Source: Anaerolineae bacterium (GTDB lineage: Bacteria; Chloroflexota; Anaerolineae; B4-G1). From it: a stretch of 32,171 bases of DNA. The position numbers and the translations under genes are program-made. The notes below the pieces were generated by a model. It was given only the letters and a program-made list of their open reading frames with translations, was not told the DNA's origin and ran no database searches. The DNA lies in the NCBI GenBank assembly GCA_016783285.1, contig JADHWW010000114.1, positions 1-32,171 on the forward strand. The letters are read 5' to 3'. Below, piece after piece: positions 9,790 through 11,883 of this stretch (the first letter of the stretch is position 1; each line of letters opens with the position of its first letter).

Positions 9790-9805
9790 CTTGTCATTCC
9801 GTCAT
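9783..9805 (-). repeat. ATGACRA-type repeat spanning the ddl stop and ftsQ start
   Basis: Three near-identical 7-bp units (TTGTCAT, TTGTCAT, CCGTCAT on the plus strand) at 8-bp spacing. On the minus strand one unit provides the ftsQ ATG and another contains the ddl TGA. It belongs to the same family as 5190-5224. Confidence 0.6.
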
Positions 9806-11883
9806 TTGTACGAAGTCTCCGAACGCTCTTTGTCCTCATACCGCTCGAACGCGAGTTCGATCAGCCGGTCAATCAATTCCGGATACGGGATGCCGCTGGC
9901 ATCCCACAACTTGGGATACATGCTGATAGCAGTGAAACCCGGAATGGTATTTAGCTCATTCACGTACAATTCCCCCGTCTCGCCGGAGAGCAGTATATCA
10001 ACCCGCGCCATCCCACAACAGTCAATCGCCTCGTAGGCTCTGAGCGCCAAATCTCGCACTCGCTCAGCCACCTCCGGCGGGAGGGGAGCAGGAATCAGCA
10101 GTTTTGACGCCCTGTCGCCATCGTCAATGTATTTGGCCTCGTAACTGTAGAACTCTCGGCTAGGGATGATCTCGCCCGGCACCGAGGTTATAGGATCATC
10201 GTTGCCCAACACGCTGACCTCAATCTCCCGTGCTGCTGGCACAGCCGCCTCTGCCAGCAACTTGCGGTCATACCGGGCCGCCTGAGCCAACCCGGCTGCC
10301 AATCCGGCCCGCTCGTGACATTTGCTGATGCCAACGCTGGAGCCCATGTTGGCCGGCTTGATGAAGACCGGGTAGCCCAGCGCTGCCTCGATCCGGGCCA
10401 TCACCTTCTCAGGATTCGCGTCCCACTCTTTGCGCTTGAGCATTATGTATTCCACACCAGGCAGGCCATGAGCCCGCATCACGTCCTTGAAAACCGCCTT
10501 GTCCATCCCCAGGGCGGAACCGGTCACCCCGGCCCCCACGTAGGGGATAACCGCCAGTTCCAGCAACCCCTGCACCGTGCCATCCTCGCCATACGGCCCG
10601 TGCAGGACAGGAAATATGACGTCCAGCTCCGCCAGCTGCGTCGCTTCGATCGCCCGCTCCGTGTCATCGAGCCGCATCAAGCCACGCCAGGAGGGATCGC
10701 CCAGCAGCGCGGCAGGCTGGCTCACGCCTACATCGCCTGCCTCCAGCGCCTTCAGCGGGTCACCCAAGGCAATCCAGCGGCCTTCCTTGGTGATGCCGAT
10801 AGGCACGATATCATACTTCTCCTTATCCATCGCGTCCATCACCGACCTGGCAGAGAGGAGTGAGATTTCATGCTCCCCGGACCGCCCGCCGAAGATCACC
10901 CCTACGTGGATCTTTCGTGCCATCGTCCTCCTCGCTCCTCCCATTTCCTTGTCTTGTTGTTCACTGTCCCAATCTCCCAACAACTCAATCTCCAATTCAA
11001 GTTCGACCCCGAATTGCCGCTTCACCTCCGCCCGCGCGTGCTCGATAAGCGCCGATACATCCGCTGCAGCCGCACCGCCGGTGTTCATAAAGAAATTGCC
11101 GTGAAGTTCCGATATCTGCGCACCACCAACGCGATATCCACGCAGCCCAGCCTGCTCAATAAGATACCCAGCGTGGCTGCCCGGCGGATTTTTGAAGGTC
11201 GAACCCATCGTCGCCCCAGCCGGATGGCGCGTCCTGCGCCACTCCAGGATTTCGTCCGCTCTCGCCACAAGCGCCTTCGGGTTGCTCTGTTGCAGACCGA
11301 AGGTCGCCGCCAGCACCACGAACCGCTGGCTACTCATCATCTCTCGCTTGATCCGGCTTGACCGGTACTCGAACTCAAACCACTCCGCTGGCACCTCCAC
11401 GACCCCGCCGCCCGGTTCCAGCACCGTCGCGCTGCGCAGCACGCTCGCGATATCGCCCTCGAAAGCACCCGCGTTGCCGATCACCGCCCCGCCCACCGTC
11501 CCCGGCAACCCCACCGCCCATTCCAACCCCGCCAGGCCGCGCTCGACCGCCCCACCGGCCAGCACAGCCAGCAGCGCGCCCGCCTCCGCCCGCGCCACTT
11601 CGCCATCAAACTGGACACACGCTGCCCGATCGACAATCACCAGCCCACGCACCCCGCTGTCTGCGACCAGCACGTTGCGGCCGCCACCCAGCAGCCACCA
11701 GGACACGCCGTGCAGCCACGCTAGTTCCACCGCTCTGACGACCTCATCCACACCCTCACAGACGATCAGCAAATCGGCCGGGCCGCCGACACGCATGGCA
11801 GTGTAGTGCGCCAGAGGCTCATCGCGCCGGGCGCGCTGCCCCAGCGCCACCGCTAGAGCATCCAGGTCGGAACTAACGACCAT
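9802..11883 (-). CDS. murB-ddl: Bifunctional MurB-Ddl: UDP-MurNAc dehydrogenase fused to D-Ala-D-Ala ligase
   Basis: One uninterrupted 693-residue frame covers two enzymes. Residues 1 to about 305 are a type II MurB, the FAD enzyme that reduces UDP-GlcNAc-enolpyruvate to UDP-MurNAc: YTAMRVGGPADLLI, GLEWAVGLPGTVGGAVIGNAG, GSTFKNPPG with the likely proton-donor Ser, and AQISELHGNFFMNTGGA. From Met-321 (ATG at 10923) follows a complete 373-residue D-Ala-D-Ala ligase of the ATP-grasp fold: VGVIFGGRSGEHEISL, HGPYGEDG, IKPANMGSSVGISK, REFYSYEAKY and ELNTIPGFT. The ~15-residue linker is hydrophilic. Its DNA still looks intergenic, with two Shine-Dalgarno-like stretches before the ddl ATG, so Ddl may also be made separately. 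murB and ddl are often neighbours in dcw clusters, so the fusion is compatible with loss of a stop codon. A one-base sequencing error remains possible. AAGGAG stands four bases before the murB ATG. Confidence 0.9.
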   Translation of the reverse strand: MVVSSDLDALAVALGQRARRDEPLAHYTAMRVGGPADLLIVCEGVDEVVRAVELAWLHGVSWWLLGGGRNVLVADSGVRGLVIVDRAACVQFDGEVARAEAGALLAVLAGGAVERGLAGLEWAVGLPGTVGGAVIGNAGAFEGDIASVLRSATVLEPGGGVVEVPAEWFEFEYRSSRIKREMMSSQRFVVLAATFGLQQSNPKALVARADEILEWRRTRHPAGATMGSTFKNPPGSHAGYLIEQAGLRGYRVGGAQISELHGNFFMNTGGAAAADVSALIEHARAEVKRQFGVELELEIELLGDWDSEQQDKEMGGARRTMARKIHVGVIFGGRSGEHEISLLSARSVMDAMDKEKYDIVPIGITKEGRWIALGDPLKALEAGDVGVSQPAALLGDPSWRGLMRLDDTERAIEATQLAELDVIFPVLHGPYGEDGTVQGLLELAVIPYVGAGVTGSALGMDKAVFKDVMRAHGLPGVEYIMLKRKEWDANPEKVMARIEAALGYPVFIKPANMGSSVGISKCHERAGLAAGLAQAARYDRKLLAEAAVPAAREIEVSVLGNDDPITSVPGEIIPSREFYSYEAKYIDDGDRASKLLIPAPLPPEVAERVRDLALRAYEAIDCCGMARVDILLSGETGELYVNELNTIPGFTAISMYPKLWDASGIPYPELIDRLIELAFERYEDKERSETSYK

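What the first reader, a model, noticed from the sequence alone, without database searches (positions are those of the whole stretch)
9802..11883. MurB and Ddl in one 693-codon frame, with a relic ribosome site in the linker
Both enzymes look complete, with all active-site motifs, and are joined by a linker whose DNA (10921-10975) still has the character of an intergenic space: two GGAGG-like sites precede the Ddl ATG at 10923. Fusing MurB (step to UDP-MurNAc) to Ddl (D-Ala-D-Ala supply) would link both ends of stem-peptide assembly. MurC-Ddl fusions are known from chlamydiae; the MurB-Ddl order is less familiar to me. One extra G in the GGG run near 10971 would create a stop at once, so an assembly error must be excluded.
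Basis: partly seen in the sequence, partly recalled or inferred. Interest (0 to 1): 0.7.

Follow-up and report, generated by a model that had tools for sequence, protein, structure and literature searches.

The report
Private MurB-Ddl enzyme fusion frame
Two neighbouring genes for cell-wall building enzymes read as one long gene in this bacterial DNA, while the closest relatives seem to keep them apart; it is most likely a recent accidental joining (or possibly a one-base sequence error), and similar joinings seem to have arisen several times in related bacteria.

Summary
The frame is real in this sequence: 693 codons at 9802-11883 (-), complete MurB (residues 1-305), 15-residue linker, complete Ddl (321-693), with the expected active-site residues. 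The setting is an ordinary dcw operon, murC-murB-ddl-ftsQ-ftsA-ftsZ, nearest to Anaerolineae. Close kin do not seem to share it. The nearest Ddl predictions (96% and 94%) and the nearest MurB (85%) are stand-alone; 10 of 10 family genomes with a readable junction are separate; of 140 other unique junctions read, one is joined. The junction is hypervariable. The 'relic' ribosome site is not decayed (best of 22 starts scored, though only just), so free Ddl is probably still made. MurB-Ddl fusions occur elsewhere: six predicted proteins and one genome, whose only strong ddl match is the fused one. On a tree they need at least five changes of state. Seven paper searches listed no report of this pair. 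Best reading: a recent, private fusion by loss of the murB stop, probably giving a tethered MurB-Ddl plus free Ddl, with no evidence for channelling. A one-base sequence error is the main rival and cannot be excluded without reads.

The parts
9802..11883 (-). single open frame, 693 codons, MurB-Ddl
10969..11883 (-). MurB part, residues 1-305 (UDP-N-acetylmuramate dehydrogenase)
   Evidence: Pfam and NCBIfam; Y173, R174, S228, E298
10924..10968 (-). linker, 15 residues (DSEQQDKEMGGARRT), probably former intergenic space
   Evidence: pLDDT below 50 at residues 314-321
10927..10934 (-). ribosome-binding site CGAGGAGG, 3 bases before the ddl ATG
   Evidence: anti-SD energy -10.7, lowest of 22 starts scored (next -10.3); best of 122 internal ATGs scored as background -10.6
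10937..10941 (-). second, upstream GGAGG
9805..10923 (-). Ddl part, residues 321-693 (D-alanine--D-alanine ligase), own ATG retained
12114..13547 (-). murC, upstream neighbour (230-base gap)
   Evidence: TIGR01082 461.4 against 335.1
8956..9789 (-). ftsQ-like gene, downstream neighbour (12-base gap); named by place and reading only, no NCBIfam match at 1e-20

Best explanation
In an Anaerolineae-like bacterium the stop codon of murB was lost recently (by substitution or small indel) at the murB-ddl junction of an ordinary dcw operon, so that murB now runs in frame into ddl. Shown: the open frame, both complete domains, the intact ddl start with a strong ribosome site, and stand-alone predictions in the nearest kin. 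Inferred: translation from the murB start yields a 693-residue MurB-Ddl in which each domain does its usual reaction independently on a flexible tether, while ribosomes entering at the retained ddl site make free Ddl as before. The fusion is therefore probably near-neutral, without channelling: MurB makes UDP-MurNAc and Ddl makes D-Ala-D-Ala for MurF, so they are not consecutive steps (established pathway knowledge).
For: Open frame and complete domains; active-site residues. Nearest Ddl P0241 (96%) and P0242 (94%) start at MARKI as separate predictions and group with the window in the tree with 100% support. Nearest MurB P0121, 85%, 303 residues, ends two residues before the place where the window's linker begins. 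Junctions are hypervariable: of 103 unique loci, 26 overlap, 38 have gaps of 0-30 bases, 18 of 31-100, 19 over 100, 2 fused (window and L062) (positions good to about 6 bases). Ribosome site -10.7. Most large genes of the window read as full-length frames, which argues for a low error rate in this contig. Same-type fusion in L062, where it holds the only strong ddl match of that genome. Fused sister pair P0002/P0084 nested among unfused kin. Model: two folded domains, linker pLDDT below 50, pTM 0.56.
Against: No reads and no second sequence of this organism; the window is in no held genome and its own fusion is not in the list. The fused state lies on a very short end branch (0.021 changes per column), which is where a sequence error would also appear. 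P0241 and P0121 lie on short contigs (1658 and 1252 bases) and may be cut at an end. The ribosome-site score separates little: 28 of 122 internal ATGs score -7 or lower and 6 score -10.1 or lower (two of these lie at the end of ftsI, just before the murF start). Internal initiation is inferred from sequence only. One methyltransferase piece in the window (27997-28269) is incomplete.
Confidence: 0.6

Rival explanations
1. Sequence or assembly error: one missing or extra base near the end of murB hides the stop, and the organism has two ordinary genes.
For: Nearest kin are separate as predicted; a one-base shift at 10970-10968 meets TGA two codons on; the fusion is private to the window.
Against: Most large genes of the window read as full-length frames, so the contig is not indel-ridden; the GGG is not a long homopolymer; natural fusions of the same pair seem to exist in other lineages, in one case in two related proteins.
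Confidence: 0.3
2. Selected bifunctional enzyme: tethering MurB to Ddl is advantageous (co-expression, co-localisation with the divisome) and the fusion is the only product.
For: Repeated appearance, and apparent persistence in P0002/P0084 and P0076/P0078; in G188 no other strong ddl match exists.
Against: Not seen in 94-96% identical kin; strong internal ribosome site kept; non-consecutive reactions; low-confidence linker and pTM 0.56.
Confidence: 0.08

Closest known systems
Chlamydia MurC-Ddl fusion
   Same: Ddl is the C-terminal half, joined to a Mur enzyme
   Different: Partner is MurC, not MurB. For the chlamydial protein, Ddl activity was reported to depend on the fusion (passage in PMC4803751). 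The NCBIfam model NF011171 is far below its cut-off here (223.8 against 1015)
Verrucomicrobia MurB/C fusion
   Same: MurB joined to another cytoplasmic Mur enzyme
   Different: MurC comes first, linker about 100 residues, present in all sequenced Verrucomicrobiales (9/9) and Methylacidiphilales (3/3) of that study; it complemented E. coli murB and murC mutants, but MurB activity could not be shown in vitro (passages of PMC4803751). The window's fusion is private
L062 (genome G188) MurB-Ddl
   Same: same two domains, same order, 682 codons, linker about 20 residues; the only strong ddl match of its genome
   Different: 49% identical to the window; 12 of 12 other genomes of its family with both genes readable are separate; apart from the window in the tree
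P0002/P0084 and P0076/P0078 (predicted metagenome proteins)
   Same: same domain order
   Different: linkers of 30-74 residues; P0002/P0084 form one supported clade (96/93) among unfused kin; organism and DNA not seen

Membership tests
MurB (NF010480, TIGR00179) | score above curated cut-off | tested here: met
   284.4 against 259; 216.6 against 144.5
MurB (NF010480, TIGR00179) | Tyr-Arg, Ser and C-terminal Glu of the active site (roles recalled) | tested here: met
   Y173, R174, S228, E298, invariant in 24 of 24 rows covering them
Ddl (NF002528, TIGR01205) | score above curated cut-off | tested here: met
   457.4 against 262; 349.3 against 245.65. The narrower equivalogs NF002526 (416.6 against 449) and NF002525 (381 against 457) are not reached
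Ddl (NF002528, TIGR01205) | catalytic residues (E15, S150, K215, Y216, R255, D257, E270, N272 of E. coli DdlB, recalled; placed by motif) | tested here: met
   all present; 7 of 8 invariant in 30 of 30 rows covering them, E339 in 28 of 30
[quoted passage not shown]
   no bench work
MurC-Ddl fusion (NF011171) | MurC domain N-terminal to Ddl, score above cut-off | tested here: not met
   223.8 against 1015, matching only the Ddl part; murC is a separate gene upstream
Fixed (lineage-wide) Mur fusion, as Verrucomicrobia MurB/C | fusion shared by close relatives | tested here: not met
   0 of 10 family genomes with a readable junction; P0241 and P0242 listed as separate proteins

The most novel reading that the evidence does not exclude
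MurB-Ddl is an unreported bifunctional architecture that arises again and again in Chloroflexota and their kin (at least five changes of state on the Ddl tree, most simply separate gains) and is kept in some lineages across species (P0002/P0084 with 96/93 support; P0076/P0078). The window is then a case caught at birth, with the second gene's ribosome site still intact.
Probability: 0.45. Interest if true: 0.45.

Novelty: new variant of a known kind. Interest (0 to 1): 0.3.

Why it matters
Fusions among cytoplasmic peptidoglycan enzymes that I met in print are few (MurC-Ddl, MurB/C). A pair that fuses repeatedly by stop loss at a hypervariable operon junction, with both fresh and older cases at hand, would let one ask whether such fusions are selected or neutral, and how a gene start inside a fused frame decays. 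If the window is only a sequence error it matters little.

Tried and rejected
Rejected: substrate channelling (the two reactions are not consecutive; model pTM 0.56 with low-confidence linker). Rejected: a fusion conserved in the window's lineage. Rejected: using the 'open_frame_aa' column of the genome search as a sign of fusion; several values of 650-750 (such as G401, G424, G499, G532, G606) proved separate when the DNA was read.

Led nowhere: own genome not held; viral contigs gave no relative; a phylum search with P0078 listed no fused genome of its kind (capped list). Paper searches for a MurB-Ddl fusion: by title and start of abstract none of the listed papers is about one, and I read passages in three only. 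The library lacks most subscription journals, so this is weak evidence of absence.

Weak points of the counts: the junction loci are not a random sample (best matches first, some from other phyla). One search examined 261 records (260 loci and the window): 84 lacked a match to one of the two genes and 1 had them on opposite strands; the other 176 fall into 141 unique junctions after merging records that share any 150 bases (which also merges a few sister species). The Ddl query in the scripts began at residue 323, so the gaps are about 6 bases too long where that query was best; one search corrects this for 103 loci and replaces the bins. In one search the word FUSED beside L061, L067, L068 and L094 means only that murB's frame runs past the ddl start in another frame. 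One search printed wrong tails for loci on the other strand and then stopped; one search replaced its tree. The tree is the quick kind, on 117 chosen rows; 38 protein rows were taken as separate by their length and 2 locus rows (L066, L131) without a junction reading. The fused label is a little clustered (2 of 500 shuffles as low), which the two sister pairs explain. Changes counted on a tree may be gains or losses. The fused proteins P0001, P0002, P0030, P0076, P0078 and P0084 are known as predictions only, and P0084 is cut at its start.

Full report
What is there. On the minus strand, 9802-11883 is one open frame of 693 codons. Residues 1-305 are MurB and 321-693 are Ddl, both above curated cut-offs (NF010480 284.4 against 259; TIGR00179 216.6 against 144.5; NF002528 457.4 against 262; TIGR01205 349.3 against 245.65), with Pfam matches that span the domains. 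The best solved structure of a MurB aligns over residues 18-304 and that of a Ddl over residues 4-369 of the Ddl part. The active-site residues, whose roles I recall, are present: Y173, R174, S228 and E298 in MurB, and E339, S516, K584, Y585, R627, D629, E643 and N645 in Ddl. They are invariant in the rows that cover them, except E339 (28 of 30). The linker is 15 residues, 10924-10968.

Setting. The window carries a dcw cluster: mraZ, mraW, an ftsL-like frame, ftsI, murF, mraY, murD, ftsW, murG, a CvpA-like gene, murC, murB-ddl, ftsQ-like, ftsA, ftsZ, then hrcA, grpE, dnaK, dnaJ, prmA. NCBIfam cut-offs are met by murF, murC, murD, mraY, ftsA, murG, ftsW and the mraW gene; ftsZ, the CvpA-like gene and prmA have Pfam matches; ftsQ and ftsI meet no NCBIfam cut-off and, like the remaining genes, are named by place and reading. 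The order murC-murB-ddl-ftsQ is usual (recalled), so the two genes are neighbours by descent and only the missing stop is unusual. The nearest relatives with names are Anaerolineae and other Chloroflexota metagenome genomes.

Do close relatives share it? No, as far as could be tested. The protein database search with the whole fusion admits proteins of about 381-1213 residues. Among the best 120 listed, six hold both domains (P0001, P0002, P0030, P0076, P0078 and the start-truncated P0084), all only 41-56% identical to the window; the other 114 are Ddl-sized. The search with Ddl alone gives P0241 (96%, 372 residues) and P0242 (94%, 373 residues), both starting at MARKI, exactly at the window's internal ATG; the next hits are 85% or less. 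P0241 lies on a 1658-base contig, so there are about 540 bases beside it; had the frame been joined and these bases lain upstream, a longer prediction would be expected (inference). The search with MurB alone gives P0121 at 85%, which ends two residues before the place where the window's linker begins; its contig has only 1252 bases, so its end may be a contig end. Of the 114 of 120 listed MurB hits in which I could locate the last strand, 75 end within two residues of it. In the family of G196 (13 genomes, Ddl 71-78% identical) the 10 genomes with both genes at one readable junction all have a stop or a different frame there.

How rare is a joined frame? In 251 genomes of the order of G220, searched with P0002, 18 listed places do so (two of them in part) and all 18 hold a stop (capped; five of these genomes are also in the first list). 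Reading the DNA, 103 unique loci (window included) gave 26 overlapping, 38 with gaps of 0-30 bases, 18 of 31-100, 19 over 100, and 2 fused, the window and L062. With the later loci there are 141 unique junctions, and still only these two are fused: 1 of 140 others. In 22 of the 101 separate ones ddl already lies in murB's frame. The junction is plainly hypervariable.

Other fusions. L062 has a 682-codon MurB-Ddl frame with its own ATG and a linker of about 20 residues, with a murC-like frame before it and an ftsQ-like frame after it (by reading). Searching that genome with the window's Ddl finds the fused copy (E 2e-122) and only one weak further match (E 7.8e-5), so the fused copy is probably its working ddl. 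Twelve of 12 other genomes of its family with both genes readable are separate. On a Ddl tree of 117 rows the eight fused rows need six changes of state, of which well supported branches force at least five (quick tree; changes may be gains or losses, most simply gains here). The window groups with P0241 and P0242 (100% support). P0076 and P0078 are sisters (100), and so are P0002 and P0084 (100; 96/93 in the careful tree of 32 rows, nested among unfused kin). P0002 and P0084 agree at 299 of 361 Ddl, 145 of 168 MurB and 18 of 30 linker positions; P0076 and P0078 at 293 of 362, 232 of 307 and 22 of 54. These pairs argue that MurB-Ddl fusions are real and can last, though I saw only predicted proteins. 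In some unfused kin of P0002 the MurB tail resembles its linker (WP..A..ALY), so that linker seems to be an old MurB tail plus a few codons.

The ribosome site. CGAGGAGG at 10934-10927 pairs with a generic anti-Shine-Dalgarno sequence at -10.7 kcal/mol, the lowest of 22 gene starts scored in the window (next -10.3; starts as in the longest frames). Of 122 internal ATGs scored as background, the lowest is -10.6 and six reach -10.1 or lower, two of them at the end of ftsI just before the murF start, so the score is suggestive only. The spacing of 3 bases is short, but the window's murB start has the same best spacing. I take it that the site still works and that free Ddl is made. This is inference.

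Structure. AlphaFold2 on an alignment of 46 sequences gave mean pLDDT 87.9, pTM 0.56, and pLDDT below 50 at residues 314-321. This suggests two well-formed domains without a settled mutual position. E298, the last catalytic residue of MurB, lies 8 residues before the linker; relatives carry tails of up to 19 residues there, so a tail is tolerated.

Error or real? No read data can be reached from here. For error: the state is private, on an end branch of 0.021 changes per column, and one shifted base would meet a stop. Against: most large genes of the window read as full-length frames, the run is only three G, and the same joining is found elsewhere. One gene piece, a methyltransferase end at 27997-28269, is incomplete; I saw no missing start in the other two frames on that strand, so it looks truncated and not frame-shifted. 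I put about 0.6 on a real recent fusion with two likely products and 0.3 on an error; these are judgements and not computed.

Known relatives. Passages of PMC4803751 describe the Verrucomicrobium MurB/C fusion: MurC first, it complemented E. coli murB and murC mutants although MurB activity could not be shown in vitro, and it is present in Verrucomicrobiales (9/9) and Methylacidiphilales (3/3). They also cite the Chlamydia MurC-Ddl, whose ligase activity was said to depend on the fusion. Passages of PMC12283558 mention both. Passages of PMC8871954 describe the dcw cluster. Searches listed no paper that by title or start of abstract concerns a MurB-Ddl fusion. The window is therefore a new variant of a known kind, fused Mur enzymes, and not a member of either published fusion family.

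Noticed in passing
L005:about 6001-6945 with the frame before it (genome G004), and L060 (genome G236): murC and murB are joined in one open frame here: 2 of 85 murC-murB pairs tested. Fusions in this operon are not confined to murB-ddl.
   Followed up: partly
protein hits P0205, P0195, P0197, P0218: Closely similar MurB proteins carry 1 to 4 copies of a VTRSDDFSR..SRATEVATTDV peptide repeat in one spot inside the protein; total length runs from 340 to 420 residues.
   Followed up: no
linkers of P0030, P0076, P0078; also inside the MurB part of P0030: Peptides such as LTPGPSP..GRGE and PLPMGEGPGVRG look like translated dispersed repeats (recalled resemblance). Repeat insertion at the junction may have helped to join the genes.
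   Followed up: no
window 19292-22455: No murE is seen between ftsI and murF, where it commonly lies (order recalled); ftsI and murF overlap by 4 bases. The ten cluster proteins scanned reach no MurE cut-off.
   Followed up: partly
window 27997-28269 (-): A 90-residue piece matching only the end of methyltransferase domains (positions 48-94 of 95), without the SAM-binding start: probably a decayed gene.
   Followed up: partly
L082, L084, L085 junctions: murB-ddl gaps of about 220-540 bases with repeated ACGCGGATGAACGCGGAT-like units and, in L084 and L085, an extra small frame between the genes.
   Followed up: no
window 28001-32000: GC falls from about 0.62 to 0.56 and then 0.52 beyond the operon.
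   Followed up: no
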